A stretch of DNA of 64,000 bases from Gloeobacter morelensis MG652769 (GTDB lineage Bacteria; Cyanobacteriota; Cyanobacteriia; Gloeobacterales; Gloeobacteraceae): positions 3,472,001-3,536,000 of the forward strand of contig NZ_CP063845.1 of NCBI RefSeq assembly GCF_021018745.1, given 5' to 3'. This document shows positions 1-7,594 of the stretch, in pieces. How positions within the stretch are numbered: the first letter of the stretch is position 1; each line of letters starts with the position of its first letter. A program made the translations under genes and the position numbers. The notes below the pieces were generated by a model that had not been told where the DNA came from, made no database searches, and was given only the letters and a program-made list of their open reading frames with translations.

Positions 1-1032
1 AGCGGGGGAGCGCAACGACTCGCCGACGATCACCTGGGTGATGTTTTTTTGCAGGGCAAAGTCGATGAGCGCCCCTGCCACATCGCGGTTTTGCAGCTGC
101 ACAAATTCGCCCGCCGCCGCCTCGGTGGCCGCGCGGTGCTCCTGCAAGGTGTGCGCTTCGGGGGGAGCGAGCGGCCTACCCGTCTCGACGTAGGCCACGA
201 ACAATTCGGCGTCGAGCCGCTCGGCAATGCGCGCCCCGCGGCGGATGAGCCGGGCGGAAGCCGGATTGGTGCTCACCGCCGCGAGTACCCGTTCGCGCAC
301 CCCCGCCGGACCTGCCACGCCGTTCTTGCCCGACAGGATGTCGGCATCGACCACCTCGGCGACTGCGCGCAGGGCCAGTTCACGCAGGTAGACCAGGGTG
401 CTGCGGCGCAAAAAAGGGCTGCCCGGAGGAATGTACCTGGCCGCATCGCCGCGCTGCAGGCGCTCCAGGACGGCTTCCGGGCTCGCATCGACCAGTTGCA
501 CCTCCTCGGCGCTGCGCAGCAGCCGGTCGGGCACCGTCTCGTGCACAACCGCCCCAATCAGACGTCCGGCGGCCTCGGCGACGCTTTCGAGGTGCTGGAT
601 GTTCATGGCGCTCATCACGCTCACCCCGGCATCGAGCAGCACCTCCACATCTTCGTAGCGCTTGCGGTGGCGGCTGCCGGGGGCATTGGTGTGGGCCAGC
701 TCATCGATGAGCACTGTGGCCGGCCGCCGCTGCAAAATCGCCTCCAAGTCGAGTTCCGGGATGATCACACCCTGGTAGGCGACCTGGCGCGGTGCCATCA
801 CTTCGAGATCCGCGAGCAACGCTTCGGTGTCGGGGCGGTCGTGGGTCTCCACCCAGCCGACCACCAGATCCACGCCGCGGCGGCGCAACCGACGGGCCTC
901 CTGGAGCATGCGCGTGGTTTTGCCCACCCCGGGCGTGTAGCCGAGATAGAGCTTCAGCCGACCCCCCGACAGCTGCATCAGCTCGTGCAGCAACGATTGG
1001 GGATCGGGGCGGTCTTCGTTTGGACGAAACAT
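1..1032 (-). CDS. kdpD: KdpD N-terminal sensor protein, 3' end beyond the window
   Basis: The reading frame starts at ATG 1032 and stays open to base 1, giving 344 residues without a stop; the C-terminus lies outside the window. The KdpD P-loop GYTPGVGKT is at about residues 31-39, followed by the conserved segments VLIDELAHTNAPGS and MSAMNIQHLESV. A universal-stress-protein-like domain begins near residue 245 (RVLAAVSTNPASARLIRRG). KdpD senses low potassium or turgor. In cyanobacteria it is usually a short protein of about 370 residues without the membrane and kinase part, and the visible piece fits that form, though the missing end prevents proof. It is the third gene of a leftward operon, 12 bases after the response regulator, and lies divergent to kdpFABC. 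Family assignment is firm. Confidence 0.9.
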   Translation of the reverse strand, partial: MFRPNEDRPDPQSLLHELMQLSGGRLKLYLGYTPGVGKTTRMLQEARRLRRRGVDLVVGWVETHDRPDTEALLADLEVMAPRQVAYQGVIIPELDLEAILQRRPATVLIDELAHTNAPGSRHRKRYEDVEVLLDAGVSVMSAMNIQHLESVAEAAGRLIGAVVHETVPDRLLRSAEEVQLVDASPEAVLERLQRGDAARYIPPGSPFLRRSTLVYLRELALRAVAEVVDADILSGKNGVAGPAGVRERVLAAVSTNPASARLIRRGARIAERLDAELFVAYVETGRPLAPPEAHTLQEHRAATEAAAGEFVQLQNRDVAGALIDFALQKNITQVIVGESLRSPA

Positions 1033-1044
1033 GGCAACCCACGG

Positions 1045-1695
1045 TTAAGGAGGAGCGATCAGGCCCTTCTCGAGGGCGACGACGACGGCCTGGGTGCGGT
1101 CGACCGCCCCGAGCTTGCGCAGGATGGCGTGGACATGCACCCGCACGGTGCCGCTTGAGATGTGTAGTTGGCGACCGATCTCGGGGTTGCTGGCCCCCCG
1201 GGCGATCCAGCGCAGCACCTCCTTTTCCCGTTCGGTGAGGGTGACGGTGCCCGGGGCTTCGCCCGGGGCTGGAGCCAAAGCGCTGCGCACCTGGGCGAGT
1301 ACTTTCGCGTCGAACCAGCCGTTGCCGGCGCTGACCTCGCGGATGACCGTGAGCAGATGCTCCGGCGAGATACCCTTCAGGCAGTAACCGTCCGCGCCTT
1401 TCCGCAAGATCGTCTGCACCAGATTCGCCTCTTCGCGCGAGGTGAGCACCAGCACCCGCACTTCGGGATACTCCCGCTTGAGGCGCTCCAGCGTCCTTTG
1501 CCCCCCGATCCCCGGCAGGCTGATATCGAGCAGCACCAGCCGCGGTTGCAGACGGTCCACCAGATCCAGGGCCGTTTCTCCGTCCTCCGCCTCGCCCACC
1601 AGTTCAAGCTCCGATTGGTTGCGCAGAAACAGCGCAAGCCCCATGCGAAAGAGCGGATCGTCCTCGACCAGCAGCACGGTGATGGGTTCACTCAC
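1045..1695 (-). CDS. NarL/FixJ-type response regulator
   Basis: This is a 216-residue two-component response regulator. The receiver domain covers residues 6-120, with acidic residues in VEDD and a phosphoacceptor Asp near residue 57 in LVLLDIS. The C-terminal LuxR-type helix-turn-helix reads LTEREKEVLRWIARG followed by GTVRVHVHAILRKLG. The start is GTG and overlaps the stop of the upstream histidine kinase by four bases (GTGA), so the two are translationally coupled and very likely partners. The kdpD-like gene follows 12 bases later. In most bacteria the Kdp regulator KdpE is an OmpR-type protein; here a NarL-type regulator holds the position. Control of the divergent kdp genes is an inference from gene order. 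Confidence 0.93.
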   Translation of the reverse strand: MSEPITVLLVEDDPLFRMGLALFLRNQSELELVGEAEDGETALDLVDRLQPRLVLLDISLPGIGGQRTLERLKREYPEVRVLVLTSREEANLVQTILRKGADGYCLKGISPEHLLTVIREVSAGNGWFDAKVLAQVRSALAPAPGEAPGTVTLTEREKEVLRWIARGASNPEIGRQLHISSGTVRVHVHAILRKLGAVDRTQAVVVALEKGLIAPP

Positions 1696-2798
1696 AGCTT
1701 CACCTCCGCCCCCGCCGTCGGCGCGGGCAAGGCCACGGCGAACAGGCAGCCCCCCCCGGGTCGGTTGACCGCCCAGATCCGCCCGCCGTGGGCTTCGACG
1801 ATCTGCCGGGATAGGTACAGCCCCAGGCCGGTGCCGGGAATATGGCGGGTGTTGTCGGACTGGTAGAAGCGATCGAAGATGCGCCGGATGTCCGCAGGGG
1901 GGATGCCCGAGCCGGTATCCTCCACCAATAGCCGCACCTCCCCTGCTGCCGGCATCAGCCGCACCGTCACCCGCCCCCCGCGCGGCGTGTGGTTGATGGC
2001 GTTGCCCACCAGATTCGCCACCACCCGGCCCAGTTGCAAACCGTCCACCGCCAGGTGCACGTCTTCGGCTCCCTCATAGACCAATTCGATTTGGCGGCTG
2101 AGGGCCAGATCCTGCAGTTCCACAATCTGCTCGGCGCACAACTCGTCGATATTTTTGACCTGCCTGTCGAGTTTCGGTCCCAAAAGGCTGTTGCGGTAGA
2201 TGGCAAGCAGCGTGTCCACCAGGGCCAGCAATTTGTGGTTGCTTTTGAGCAAAATCTCGATCACCCCCTGCTGCTGGGGGGTAATTGCCCCAAACTGGCC
2301 CTGGCCGAAAAATTGCAGCGTCTGCTGGGCGCCCAGAAGCGGCGTCTTGAGATCGTGGGTGAGGGTGGCGACGAAGTCCGACTGGGCGCGCGATAGCTCC
2401 TCTTCGGCCTGCAGGGCGGCCTTCTGGCGCGCCGCCGCCTCCTGGATCCGCCGGTACTGGAAGCCCAAGTAGGCCACCGTCAGCAGCGCGGCGACGGTGA
2501 TCAACCGGTCGACCACCGCGACGCTGCTCGCGAGCGCCTGCCGGGGAAAGACCAGATTGAGCAGCGTGAGCGCCACGCTCAGCGCCGTCACGAATACCGT
2601 GCTGCGCCGGTCCAAAAACCAGTTGGCAAGCAGGATCGGACCGACATAAAGGTAGCCGAAAATGTACTCCGGCTCGGTCGTAAATTCGAGAACCATGATG
2701 AAGGCAAACATCGAAGCGATGTACGCCGCGATCGGTCTGAAGGGAAAAATGCGCTTTGGCATGGTGGGCCAACAGCCGATAGGCAAAATTAGTCGCAT
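1692..2798 (-). CDS. Membrane-bound sensor histidine kinase
   Basis: This sensor kinase has 368 residues from the chosen ATG at 2798; ATG 2762 is an alternative. Upstream in-frame codons back to about 3083 look non-coding and overlap the divergent kdp leader, so they were excluded. Four hydrophobic segments (for example IAAYIASMFAFIMVLEF and LITVAALLTVAYLGF) form an N-terminal membrane domain. A HisKA domain follows with the phosphoacceptor His in DFVATLTHDLKTPLLG, then an HATPase domain with the N box (VVANLVGNAINHT), G1 box (VEDTGSGIP) and G2 box (GTGLGLYLS). It heads the operon with the NarL-type regulator and the KdpD sensor. The true start is uncertain because no good ribosome binding site is visible at either candidate. 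Confidence 0.9.
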   Translation of the reverse strand: MRLILPIGCWPTMPKRIFPFRPIAAYIASMFAFIMVLEFTTEPEYIFGYLYVGPILLANWFLDRRSTVFVTALSVALTLLNLVFPRQALASSVAVVDRLITVAALLTVAYLGFQYRRIQEAAARQKAALQAEEELSRAQSDFVATLTHDLKTPLLGAQQTLQFFGQGQFGAITPQQQGVIEILLKSNHKLLALVDTLLAIYRNSLLGPKLDRQVKNIDELCAEQIVELQDLALSRQIELVYEGAEDVHLAVDGLQLGRVVANLVGNAINHTPRGGRVTVRLMPAAGEVRLLVEDTGSGIPPADIRRIFDRFYQSDNTRHIPGTGLGLYLSRQIVEAHGGRIWAVNRPGGGCLFAVALPAPTAGAEVKL

Positions 2799-2840
2799 CC
2801 ACAGTTTATCAAATTTTACGTCTTTAACTCTGTCAAGCGG

Positions 2841-2862
2841 GCATATATCGTTCGTTATATGC
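2841..2862. promoter_or_regulatory. Inverted repeat in the divergent kdp control region
   Basis: GCATATA is followed by an 8-base spacer and TATATGC, a perfect 7-bp inverted repeat within the 180-bp gap between the leftward sensor operon and the rightward kdp genes. A related half, CGTATATCG, lies about ten bases further right. It looks like a binding site for a dimeric regulator and could serve both directions. The protein that binds it is unknown; the adjacent NarL-type regulator is the obvious candidate. Confidence 0.4.
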
Positions 2863-2981: not shown

Positions 2982-3065
2982 ATGGAACAGCCCTATGCCG
3001 TCTGCGGCGCCCTCGCGTTGTGGCTTACCTACCTGTACTGGATAGTAAACAACCCCAACGAATAG
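2982..3065 (+). CDS. 27-residue membrane peptide upstream of kdpF
   Basis: ATG 2982 opens a 27-codon frame with a hydrophobic middle (VCGALALWLTYLYWIV) and a polar end NNPNE, ending at TAG. GGAGAG lies about 12 bases upstream. It sits 20 bases before kdpF on the same strand, at the head of the kdp operon. The single membrane span and position suggest a small accessory peptide of the Kdp complex or a translated leader. It does not match the KdpF pattern, which the next gene does. Confidence is limited by the short length. Confidence 0.45.
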   Translation: MEQPYAVCGALALWLTYLYWIVNNPNE

Positions 3066-3085: not shown

Positions 3086-3175
3086 ATGAGCGGACCTTTG
3101 ATCCTGCTGCTGTTGATAACCGTGGGATTGGCGGCGTATTTGCTGCTGGTCATGGTCAAGCCCGAGTGGTTCTAA
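3086..3175 (+). CDS. kdpF: Potassium-transporting ATPase subunit KdpF
   Basis: This 29-residue peptide has one membrane span (LILLLLITVGLAAYLLLVMV) and the typical KdpF ending KPEWF. KdpF is a small stabilising subunit of the KdpFABC potassium pump in the inner membrane. The gene lies 15 bases before kdpA, the normal order kdpF-A-B-C. No strong ribosome binding site precedes it (AAGTGAGTCAAAA), so translation may depend on the peptide gene just upstream. Confidence 0.85.
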   Translation: MSGPLILLLLITVGLAAYLLLVMVKPEWF

Positions 3176-3190
3176 TCGAGGAATGTTTCG

Positions 3191-4915
3191 ATGAGCGAAG
3201 GTCTGTTGCAGATTGGGGCGACGCTGGTCCTGATGGTGGCCATCGTGCCCTTTTTTGGTGCCTACATGGCCCGTGTCTTTCAAGGTCAGTCCACCTGGCT
3301 GGACGCCGTGTTCGTTCCGCTGGAGGGGTGGGTGTACCGGTTGGGCGGCGTGGAACCCGAGCGGCAGATGGATTGGTGGGAGTACGCCCGGGCGGTGCTT
3401 GTCAGCAATATCGCCATGTTCGTGCCGGTCTTTGCCGTGCTGCTGCTCCAGGGTGGCCTGCCGCTCAACCCGAACAACATTCCCGGCATGTCCTGGGATC
3501 TGGCGCTGCATACGGCCATCTCGTTTTTGACCAACACCAACCAGCAGCACTACTCGGGCGAGACCGGCCTGAGCCACCTTGCCCACATGGTCGGCATCCA
3601 GTATCTGATGTTTACCTCGGCGGCCACGGGTTTGTCGGTGGGCATCGCCTTTATCCGCGGTGTGCTGGGTAAGCCCCTGGGCAATTTCTACGTCGATCTC
3701 ACCCGTTCTATTTCGCGGGTGTTGATGCCCGTCGCGAGCGCCTTTGCGGTGGTGCTGTTGTCGCAGGGGGTGCCCCAGAGTCTTTCCGGGATCACCGAGG
3801 CTAGGCTCGTCGATCCGTACCAGACGACCACCGACGGCAAGACGGAGACGGTGACGACCCAGAAGCTGGTCACCGGTCCATTCGCCTCGATGGAGAGCAT
3901 CAAGGAACTGGGTGAAAACGGCGGCGGCTCCTACGGCATCAACTCCGCCCACCCCTACGAGAACCCGAATCCGCTGACCAACACGCTTGAGATTTTGCTG
4001 TTGCTGGCCGTGCCCACGTCGCTGATTTATACCTTCGGGGTGATGGCCGGCAACAAAAAGCAGGGCTGGGTGCTGTTCGGTGTGATCTTTTTGCTGTTTG
4101 CCGGCCTGACGGGTACAGCCGCTGTGAGCGAGTACTTCGGCAATCCCGCTCTCAACGCCCTGCTGGGCTCGGCCAATCCCAACTTCGAAGGGCAGGAGGT
4201 GCGCTTCGGCTGGGCGCAGTCGGCGCTGTTCGCCACCGCCACCACCGCCACAATGACGGGCGCCGTCAACGCCATGCACGATTCGCTGACGCCCCTGGCC
4301 GGGGGAGTGGCGCTGTTCAACATGTGCCTGCAGGTCATCTGGGGCGGGCAGGGCACCGGCATCGCCTACATCCTGGTGTTTTTGATCATTGCGGTGTTTC
4401 TCACCGGCTTGATGGTGGGCCGTACCCCCGAAATCTTCAGCCGCAAAATCGAGAAGCGGGAGGTGGCCCTGGCCGGCATCATCTTCCTGGTCCACCCGAT
4501 CATCATCTTGATACCGACTGCACTGGCGGTGGGCATCCCGGGGATTGCAGCCAACTCCAACCCGCTCTATCACGGTTTGTCGCAGGTGCTCTACGAGTAC
4601 GCGAGTGCGGCGGCCAACAACGGCTCCGGCTTCGAGGGGCTTGGGGACAACACACTCTGGTGGAACCTCAGCACTTCGGTGGTGCTGTTGGCGGGCCGCT
4701 ACCTGCCCATCGTCGCCCTGCTGGCCCTCGCGGGCGGTCTGCAGCGCAAGGTGCCGGTGCCGGAGACCCCCGGTACCCTGCGCACCGACACGGTGCTGTT
4801 CGGCACGGTGACCGCGGGCACGATCGTGATTCTGGGAGCGCTGACCTTTTTCCCGGCCCTTGCGCTGGGTCCGATTGCCGAGTACTTTGCCAACCTCGCC
4901 GGTAAGACCTTCTAG
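3191..4915 (+). CDS. kdpA: Potassium-transporting ATPase subunit KdpA
   Basis: The 574-residue protein is the potassium-selective channel-like subunit of the high-affinity KdpFABC pump, with about ten membrane spans. Signature segments are present in order: [36 protein letters not shown] and [11 protein letters not shown], which correspond to the four pore repeats. Length matches the family (about 557-575). The start at ATG 3191 follows GAGGAA with good spacing. A large open frame on the opposite strand of this gene is a composition effect. It is the third gene of the rightward kdp operon, nine bases before kdpB. Confidence 0.98.
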
Positions 4916-4924
4916 GAGCCTGTC

Positions 4925-7012
4925 ATGCAAGTGCGCAACAAACCTGTCCGTCCGGTCACCGCCGCAGTCCGCTCGGATCTCAAGCGGCGCAAGGTGAACC
5001 AGGCGGGGCTGTACAGCCGGGCCGTCGCCGAGGCGTTCGTCAAACTCAATCCTCTGACGCTCTACAAGAACCCGGTGATGTTCGTGGTGCTGGTGGGCAC
5101 GGCGATCACCTTGGCCCTCACCGTCAACCCGGACCTGTTCGGCGATCTGCCCGACAGCACCCGGCTGCTCAATGGGCTAATCACCGCCATCTTGTTTTTG
5201 ACGGTGTTGTTCGGCAACTTCGCCGAGGCGGTGGCCGAGGGCCGCGGCAAGGCCCAGGCCGACGCCCTGCGCCGTACGCGCCAGGACACCTCCGCCCGGC
5301 GGGTGCTGCCCGGCGGTCGCATTGAGGAAGTCTATTCCACCCAACTGCGCAAAGGGGACGTCATCCGGGTGGTGGCGGGCGATCTGATCCCAGCCGACGG
5401 CGAGGTGCTCGAAGGGGTGGCCTCGGTGGACGAATCGGCGATCACCGGCGAATCGGCCCCGGTAATCAAAGAGCCCGGTTCGGACGTGGCGAGCACCGTC
5501 ACCGGCGGCACCCGTATCCTCTCCGACGAACTGCTGGTGCAGGTCGGCTCCAACCCGGGCGAAGGGTTCATCGACCGGATGATCGCGCTGGTGGAGGGGG
5601 CCCGCCGCCAGAAGACCCCCAACGAGATCGCCCTCACCGTGCTGCTGGCGGTGCTCACGCTCATCTTTCTCATTGTGGTGGCCACCATCCCGCCGATGGC
5701 GAACTTCGTCGGCGCCCCGGTGAGCATCGCAGCCCTGGTCGGTCTGCTGGTGGCGCTCATCCCCACGACCATCGGCGGATTGCTCTCAGCCATCGGCATC
5801 GCCGGCATGGACCGGGTGGCCCAGTTCAACGTGATCGCCACCAGCGGCAAGGCGGTGGAGGCGGCGGGCGACGTGGGCACGCTCATCCTGGATAAGACCG
5901 GCACGATTACCCTGGGTAACCGGCTCGCGGACGAATTCATCCCCGTGGGCGGCCACAGCCTCGGGCGTCTGGCGCAGGCGGCCTGGGCCGCTTCGATCTT
6001 CGACACCACCCCGGAGGGTAAGTCGGTGGTCAAGCTTGCCACGGCCCAGGGGGCGGCAGGCGGCTACGACCTGCAGGGGGCCGCCGGTATCGAATTCACC
6101 GCCCAGACGCGCATGAGCGGTACCGATTTTGGCGAGGGCCGCCGCGTGCGCAAAGGCGCCGTCGATGCCGTCAAGCGCTACGTCCAGGCGCAAGGCGGTG
6201 CGATTCCCGCAGATCTCGACGGCGCGGTCGAGCGGGTCTCGCGCCTCGGGGGCACGCCGCTTGCGGTGAGCGACGGCACCGAGATTTTTGGGATCATCTA
6301 CCTCAAGGACATCGTCAAGCCCGGCATCCGCGAGCGCTTCGAGGAATTGCGGCGCATGGGCGTCCGGACGGTCATGCTCACCGGCGACAACCGGATCACC
6401 GCCTCGGTGATTGCTGGTGAAGCGGGGGTGGACGACTTTATCGCCGAAGCCACCCCCGAGGATAAAATCCGGGTCATCCGCGAAAGCCAGGAGCAGGGCA
6501 AGTTGGTGGCGATGACCGGCGACGGCACCAACGACGCACCGGCTCTGGCGCAGGCGGACGTGGGGGTGGCGATGAACTCCGGTACCCAGGCCGCCAAGGA
6601 AGCCGCCAACATGGTCGACCTCGACTCGGACCCGACCAAGCTCATCGATGTGGTCACCATCGGCAAGCAACTGCTGATCACCCGCGGCGCGCTGACCACC
6701 TTCAGCATCGCCAACGACGTCTCGAAGTACTTCGCCCTCATCCCGGCCATGTTCGGCGCCGCCGGGATCGGTGCTCTCAACATCATGGCCCTCACCAGTC
6801 CCCAGTCGGCCATCCTCTCGGCGCTCATCTTCAATGCCCTGATCATCCCCGCCCTCATCCCGCTGGCGCTGCGGGGGGTCGAATTTCGCCCCTTGAGCGC
6901 CGACCAGTTGCTGACCCGCAACATCCTCATTTATGGATTGGGTGGCCTGGCGGTGCCGTTTGTGGGCATCAAGCTCATCGATATCGTCGTCACCGCCGTC
7001 GGCCTCGCCTAA
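4925..7012 (+). CDS. kdpB: Potassium-transporting P-type ATPase subunit KdpB
   Basis: This 695-residue catalytic subunit hydrolyses ATP to drive potassium import with KdpA. Visible P-type ATPase motifs are the actuator loop ITGESAPV, the phosphorylation site DKTGTIT (Asp near residue 323), [10 protein letters not shown] and the hinge [10 protein letters not shown]. Membrane spans flank these domains. Length fits the family. AGGAG lies ahead of ATG 4925, and the gene is 15 bases before kdpC. Confidence 0.98.
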
Positions 7013-7027
7013 CCAGGAGCCTTCACC

Positions 7028-7594
7028 ATGTCCACATTCAAAGCAATCGGCACCGCCGCCCGTATGGCCATCTTCTTCTGGATCGCCTGCGGCCTCGCCT
7101 ACCCGCTCATCCTCACGGGCTTTGCCCAGGTGGCCTTTCCTGGGCAGGCGAACGGCTCGCTGCTGCGCAACACCCAGAATCAGGTCATCGGCTCGTCGCT
7201 GATTGGCCAGAAATTCACCTCTGGGCGCTACTTCCAGGGGCGCCCCAGCAGCATCGAATACAAAGCGGAGGCCAGCGGCGCAAGCCAGCTTGCTCCCACC
7301 AACAAAGCCCTCGCCGAGCGGGTCAAAGCCGACACTGCGGCGTTTGAGGCCCAGAACGGCACCAAACCGACCATCGACCTGGTGACCACTCCCGCTTCTG
7401 GTCTCGATCCGCACATCACCCCGGCCGGGGCGGCAGCCCAGGTCGAACGGGTGGCCAAAGCCCGCAACCTCGCCCCCGATCAAGTCCGCAAGCGGGTGGC
7501 CGAACACACCGAAGGCCGCTTTTTGGGTCTTTTCGGTGAGCCGCGCGTCAACGTGCTGGAACTCAACTTGGCCCTCGACGGAGCGCAGCGATGA
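7028..7594 (+). CDS. kdpC: Potassium-transporting ATPase subunit KdpC
   Basis: The 188-residue protein has one N-terminal membrane span ([20 protein letters not shown]) and a periplasmic part with the family landmarks [24 protein letters not shown] and [14 protein letters not shown]. KdpC stabilises the KdpAB complex and raises its ATP affinity. Length is usual for the family. AGGAG precedes the start. Its stop overlaps the next gene's start (ATGA), so the downstream small protein is translated with it. Confidence 0.97.

What the first reader, a model, noticed from the sequence alone, without database searches (positions are those of the whole stretch)
1..2862. Kdp control by a split sensor: separate kinase, NarL-type regulator and kinase-less KdpD
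Seen: a leftward operon of membrane histidine kinase, NarL/LuxR-type response regulator (overlapping GTGA) and a KdpD N-terminal protein, divergent to kdpFABC. Known: classic Kdp control uses a full KdpD kinase and the OmpR-type KdpE; cyanobacterial KdpD often lacks the kinase part, leaving the partner unknown. Inference: the adjacent kinase supplies the missing activity and KdpD acts as a soluble sensor input, with a non-KdpE regulator reading out.
Basis: partly seen in the sequence, partly recalled or inferred. Interest (0 to 1): 0.6.

Follow-up and report, generated by a model that had tools for sequence, protein, structure and literature searches.

The report
Doubled kinase-less KdpD with separate two-component pair
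In the Gloeobacterales, an early branch of cyanobacteria, the potassium-pump regulator KdpD is a protein made of two fused copies of its front half with no histidine kinase, while a neighbouring kinase and regulator pair, conserved beside the pump genes in many cyanobacteria, most likely switches the pump genes on through a DNA site found once in this genome.

Summary
The gene layout is confirmed: a leftward operon of membrane histidine kinase (HK), NarL-type regulator (RR) and kinase-less KdpD, divergent to kdpFABC. KdpD runs 1,233 bases past the window edge. It is 754 aa and unexpectedly consists of two tandem KdpD-Usp modules. The same tandem gene is in all eight Gloeobacterales genomes that carry KdpD, and in Caenarcanales-type Melainabacteria; sampled crown cyanobacteria carry one module. 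Trees put all N-modules in one clade and the C-modules with the crown single KdpDs, so the duplication is old. In Gloeobacterales the serine needed for c-di-AMP binding in S. aureus KdpD is kept in 8/8 N-modules and lost in 8/8 C-modules, while the kinase part is far better conserved in the C-module. The HK-RR pair lies divergently beside kdpA in 23 of 33 assessable crown loci. A dyad, TATATC-N4-GNTATA, in that gap occurs once in the whole 5.1-Mb genome; in G003, where pump and regulator operons are separated, each has a copy. Its claim that KdpD is the HK's sensor input is not: short KdpD of D. geothermalis is a c-di-AMP-stimulated serine kinase that inhibits KdpB. New variant of a known kind.

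The parts
1..1032 (-). KdpD gene, part inside the window. The whole gene is 754 aa, window -1232..1032 (genome C1:3470768-3473032); order KdpD(1)-Usp(1)-KdpD(2)-Usp(2), no HK domain
1045..1695 (-). NarL/LuxR-type response regulator, 216 aa, phospho-acceptor Asp57
1692..2762 (-). membrane histidine kinase, 356 aa, HisKA + HATPase_c, no GAF or KdpD domain; overlaps the RR by GTGA
2844..2859 (.). dyad TATATC-GTTC-GTTATA, candidate RR operator; the only copy of TATATCNNNNGNTATA in the genome
2982..3065 (+). 27-codon ORF (MEQPYAVCGALALWLTYLYWIVNNPNE) upstream of kdpF; similar frames visible in G004 and G005 sequence
3086..3175 (+). kdpF, 29 aa
   Evidence: sequence only
3191..4915 (+). kdpA
   Evidence: TIGR00680, above cut-off
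4925..7012 (+). kdpB; the TGES serine that KdpD phosphorylates in E. coli (Ser162) is Ser177 here
7028..7594 (+). kdpC
   Evidence: TIGR00681, above cut-off

Best explanation
This is a two-layer control of the KdpFABC potassium pump. Layer 1, transcription: at low potassium the membrane HK phosphorylates the NarL-type RR, which binds the dyad at 2844-2859 and activates kdpFABC, and probably its own operon. Layer 2, the pump itself: the tandem KdpD is not a sensor part of the HK but an atypical serine kinase that, at high potassium, phosphorylates the TGES serine of KdpB and stops the pump. The two modules have divided the work: the N-module kept the c-di-AMP-type Usp and acts mainly as sensor, the C-module kept the conserved kinase part and acts mainly as kinase. 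Shown here: gene content, tandem structure, conserved residues, age of the duplication, conserved synteny, conserved and near-unique dyad. Inferred from published homologues: serine kinase activity, c-di-AMP control, RR binding to kdp DNA. Inferred here: the division of labour, and autoregulation.
For: Tandem KdpD-Usp-KdpD-Usp without HK; predicted fold has four domains in that order, with PDB matches to KdpD 2r8r and the c-di-AMP-bound Usp 7ji4. Kinase residues G36, K37, T38, D109, E110, R190 (E. coli numbers) are kept in both modules of all 8 Gloeobacterales; the adenine-stacking aromatic (E. coli W39; Y/F in 34/34 single KdpDs) is lost in 5/8 N-modules but kept in 7/8 C-modules; the S. aureus Ser244 equivalent is S in 8/8 N, 0/8 C, 34/34 single. 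Invariant columns in 16 tandem proteins, my count from the list: 79 in the C-module, 41 in the N-module. A diadenylate cyclase gene is present. KdpB keeps TGES. HK-RR next to kdp. Dyad: 14/29 intergenic regions against 0.3 in shuffles; once per genome in G000, G004, G005, always in the kdp gap; in G003 one copy before each of the two separated operons. Literature: PMC11018627, PMC8214093, PMC5897029, PMC5716572.
Against: No activity was measured for any of these proteins. The N-module keeps Walker A/B residues in all Gloeobacterales and the aromatic in 3/8, so it may still be a working kinase. TGES is general in P-type ATPases, so its presence is weak evidence. The serine motif for c-di-AMP is defined in Firmicutes; cyanobacterial Usp domains match it only in part. 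The dyad pattern was written after seeing some of the sequences (7 of the 14 loci were unseen), and 10 of 33 assessable crown loci lack a neighbouring HK. The two G003 dyads share flanking sequence, so they are a duplicated promoter, not two independent origins.
Confidence: 0.6

Rival explanations
1. One reading: the tandem KdpD is a soluble sensor that binds the adjacent HK and controls its activity, so HK plus KdpD together replace full-length KdpD.
For: In G000 and G003-G007 KdpD lies, by position, in one operon with HK-RR. In full-length KdpD the two parts are one chain (known from E. coli).
Against: In G001 and most crown genomes kdpD is in the pump operon. Tandem KdpDs of Melainabacteria have no such HK-RR nearby, and 10 assessable crown loci have single KdpD without the HK. 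A kinase role of the KdpD domain on KdpB is shown in E. coli and D. geothermalis (PMC11018627).
Confidence: 0.15
2. Both modules are active serine kinases; the tandem is simply a covalent dimer with no division of labour.
For: Walker A GKT, Walker B DE and R190 are kept in both modules.
Against: Loss of the aromatic in 5/8 N-modules, an altered 194-212 segment in N-modules, about half as many invariant columns, opposite fate of the c-di-AMP serine in the two Usp domains.
Confidence: 0.22
3. The HK-RR pair controls something else and is next to kdp by inheritance only.
For: A second, 46% identical HK-RR pair lies elsewhere in the genome without kdp; some kdp loci lack the pair.
Against: Divergent linkage in 23/33 crown loci and all Gloeobacterales where it can be seen; in six crown genomes the kdp-linked HK is the best genome-wide match; dyad found at kdp and, in G003, before both separated operons.
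Confidence: 0.1
4. The tandem arose twice, separately in Gloeobacterales and in Melainabacteria, and long branches make the modules group falsely.
For: f41 branches are long and composition differs; pumps of f41 are distant from cyanobacterial ones (KdpA about 34% identity); a Terriglobia MAG has a separate side-by-side pair nearer to full-length KdpD.
Against: AU tests reject N+C of Gloeobacterales (p 0.008) and N+C of f41 (p 0.018) as single clades; each domain alone gives the same split; with f41 left out, Gloeobacterales N and C still fall apart.
Confidence: 0.2

Closest known systems
Short KdpD-Usp atypical serine kinase (Deinococcus geothermalis type; NCBIfam NF038185 KdpD_non_kinase)
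   Same: KdpD domain plus Usp, no transmembrane, GAF or HK part; catalytic motifs kept
   Different: two modules in one chain, with unequal conservation; encoded with HK-RR rather than after kdpC in Gloeobacter
Split kdp control of Deinococcus radiodurans (KdpD-N, SK, RR; PMC5716572)
   Same: truncated KdpD; separate kinase and RR genes divergent to the pump operon
   Different: one KdpD module, encoded in the pump operon; whether the kinase and RR are of the same families was not tested here
Separate TCS for kdp in Anabaena (named in PMC11018627; PMC5716572 cites a 2008 paper on an RR that binds the Anabaena L-31 kdp promoter)
   Same: short KdpD and separate TCS in a cyanobacterium; crown locus L078 has the HK-RR pair at 45/49% identity
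   Different: single KdpD after kdpC; identity of the published RR with this family was not checked (paper not held)
Classical KdpD/KdpE of E. coli
   Same: N-terminal KdpD domain and pump genes
   Different: no HK in KdpD, NarL-type instead of OmpR-type RR; G004, a close relative, has a KdpD-KdpE-like pair in addition

Membership tests
KdpD non-kinase family (NF038185) | KdpD domain (PF02702) followed by Usp, no HK domain | tested here: met
   775 bits for the whole protein, cut-off 550
KdpD non-kinase family (NF038185) | single module of about 370 residues | tested here: not met
   754 aa with two full modules
KdpD atypical serine kinase | G-X5-GKT, Walker B DE, R190 | tested here: met
   both modules, all 8 Gloeobacterales except first Gly of Walker A in G007_N
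KdpD atypical serine kinase | aromatic at E. coli W39 | tested here: inconclusive
   Phe in the C-module, Thr in the N-module of the window's protein
KdpD atypical serine kinase | phosphorylates KdpB Ser162 | not testable with these tools
   target motif present at Ser177
Classical KdpDE | HK domain within KdpD | tested here: not met
Classical KdpDE | OmpR-type RR next to KdpD | tested here: not met
   RR has GerE/LuxR output domain
Split kdp control (short KdpD + separate TCS) | HK and RR genes beside kdp, short KdpD separate | tested here: met
Split kdp control (short KdpD + separate TCS) | RR binds kdp promoter and is required for expression | not testable with these tools
   indirect: dyad near-unique in genome

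The most novel reading that the evidence does not exclude
The tandem KdpD is an ancient two-part signalling enzyme in which the first module has become a c-di-AMP-reading regulatory pseudokinase and the second the serine kinase for the pump; crown cyanobacterial KdpD descends from the second module after loss of the first.
Probability: 0.35. Interest if true: 0.7.

Novelty: new variant of a known kind. Interest (0 to 1): 0.5.

Why it matters
How short KdpD is controlled is an open question stated in the 2024 paper that found its serine kinase activity. A natural protein that carries two such modules, with the sensing serine kept in one and the kinase part best kept in the other, gives a direct way to separate sensing from catalysis. 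That paper also argued that the serine kinase chain stays downstream of the pump genes when the HK is separate; Gloeobacter is an exception, with the gene in the regulatory operon. The conserved dyad gives a concrete, testable operator for kdp control in cyanobacteria, where the partner of short KdpD has been unclear.

Tried and rejected
Full HK domain in KdpD beyond the left edge: looked for, absent. Second, full-length KdpD elsewhere in the genome: none. Recent duplication inside Gloeobacterales: rejected by AU test. Independent duplication in f41: rejected at p 0.018. Literature on tandem, double or duplicated KdpD: five phrases, no paper in the held library; this does not cover subscription journals. 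Other genomic copies of the dyad in crown genomes lie by frames with no evident link to potassium (read by eye only), so I do not claim a wider regulon. Structure model: domains good, arrangement of the modules not resolved (pTM 0.40). Several further AU tests did not finish and are not used.

Full report
Observation. The HK (1692-2762, -) and RR (1045-1695, -) overlap by GTGA; KdpD starts at 1032 and the pump genes run the other way from kdpF at 3086. The HK has HisKA and HATPase_c with all boxes, the RR a receiver and a GerE/LuxR output domain. The whole genome shows what lies left of the window: KdpD runs on to 754 aa with no HK domain, and it holds two complete KdpD-Usp modules in one frame. 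NCBIfam matches both halves to KdpD_non_kinase.

Distribution of the tandem. Eight of nine Gloeobacterales genomes carry KdpD, and all eight have the tandem form, in frames of about 725-935 codons. Two of these are MAGs named Gloeobacterales, one is Candidatus Cyanaurora vandensis and one is filed as Aphanocapsa lilacina. In 386 genomes drawn from the phylum, the only other tandem forms were in one family outside the class (f41), named Candidatus Melainabacteria or Caenarcanales. Other sampled cyanobacteria of the class have one module of about 370 aa. A Nitrospirae MAG has a divergent tandem too; a Terriglobia MAG has two adjacent separate genes instead.

Age of the duplication. In a tree of 64 modules the N-modules of Gloeobacterales and f41 form one clade (98/94), and both sets of C-modules fall with the single crown KdpDs (96/88). 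The KdpD and Usp parts alone give the same split with lower support. Holding N and C of Gloeobacterales together is rejected (p 0.008), likewise for f41 (p 0.018). Long branches and odd composition in f41 call for caution, and their pump genes are distant, so transfer between lineages is as possible as common descent. Descent of crown KdpD from the C-module is suggested, not shown, because the root is unsure.

What the two modules kept. Against E. coli KdpD, both modules keep the Walker A GKT, Walker B DE and Arg190 that the published serine kinase needs (PMC11018627). The aromatic residue at Trp39 is Y or F in all 34 single KdpDs and F or Y in 7 of 8 Gloeobacterales C-modules, but T, V, V, L or Q in 5 of 8 N-modules. 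A segment near E. coli 194-212 is well kept in C-modules and altered in Gloeobacterales N-modules. Over 16 tandem proteins the C-module has 79 invariant columns and the N-module 41 (my count from the printed list). The Usp domains show the opposite trend: the residue matching S. aureus Ser244, whose loss abolishes c-di-AMP binding there (PMC8214093), is Ser in 8/8 N-modules and 34/34 single KdpDs, and in 0/8 C-modules. In f41 the C-modules all have Asp and the N-modules Ser in 3 of 5. S. elongatus KdpD binds c-di-AMP (PMC5897029), and the window's genome has a diadenylate cyclase gene. The predicted structure confirms four domains but not how they pack.

The HK-RR pair. In Gloeobacterales HK-RR-KdpD-KdpD is conserved in G000, G003, G004, G005, G006 and G007; in G001 the pair stays divergent to kdpFABC while tandem KdpD follows kdpC; in G002 the contig ends within the RR next to KdpD. 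In crown cyanobacteria 23 of 33 assessable loci have the pair divergent to kdpA, at 36-47% (HK) and 42-50% (RR) identity; kdpD lies after kdpC in 32 of 35. In six crown genomes searched whole, the best match to the window's HK is the one beside kdp. So the pair is a kdp-linked system of cyanobacteria at large, and the Gloeobacter peculiarity is the doubled KdpD in its operon.

A candidate operator. Reading the gap between HK and kdpF across relatives showed an inverted repeat TATATC-N4-GNTATA. A related pattern occurs in 14 of 29 such gaps against a mean of 0.3 in shuffled sequence; it was written after seeing some of them, so the genome-wide search is the better test. TATATCNNNNGNTATA occurs exactly once in G000, G004 and G005, each time in this gap; in G001 and G007 it is in the gap and at one other place; in G003, where some 5 kb separate the regulator operon from pump genes, it occurs at two places, one before each operon, with shared flanks. 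With the stricter TATATCNNNNGATATA in crown genomes, G237 has one site, at kdp, and G143, G013 and G182 two each, one at kdp; seven others have none at kdp in that exact form.

Interpretation. Published work shows that the KdpD domain is an atypical serine kinase that inhibits the pump, and that the short D. geothermalis form responds to c-di-AMP (PMC11018627). It also states that separate TCSs run kdp expression in D. radiodurans, Anabaena and Alicyclobacillus; the D. radiodurans RR binds the promoter and is required (PMC5716572). The window fits both layers. What is new here is the tandem KdpD with opposite wear in its two modules, its age, and the operator candidate.

Limits. All functional steps are inferred. 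The species of the window was not established by a tool; only its place among Gloeobacterales was. Counts rest on sampled genomes.

Noticed in passing
L065:5529-8911 (G004:C3): A close relative of the window's genome carries, besides the tandem KdpD, a full-length 893-aa KdpD with HK overlapping a KdpE-like OmpR-type regulator; no kdpABC match in the 16-kb stretch read.
   Followed up: partly
L082:9727-16764 (G003:C1): In G003 a second KdpA-like gene (568 aa) and second KdpC-like gene lie next to a normal kdpABC set, with no second KdpB between them.
   Followed up: no
L063:4038-5318 (G003:C1): A TrkA-N-like protein and an OmpR-type regulator (read by eye) lie between the HK-RR-KdpD operon and the extra kdpC of G003.
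   Followed up: no
window 2982-3065 (+): A 27-codon ORF for a small hydrophobic peptide precedes kdpF; similar frames are visible in G004 and G005. It might be a small pump subunit or leader.
   Followed up: partly
L074:6666-8400 (G000:C1:1372666-1374400): A paralogous HK-RR pair (46/49% identity) without kdp genes; HK paralogues of this kind also in G004, G005 and G006.
   Followed up: partly
L089:2960-5341: A Terriglobia MAG has two adjacent KdpD-Usp genes, the first with an altered Walker B (VDGLA), nearer to full-length KdpDs: a possible independent doubling.
   Followed up: partly
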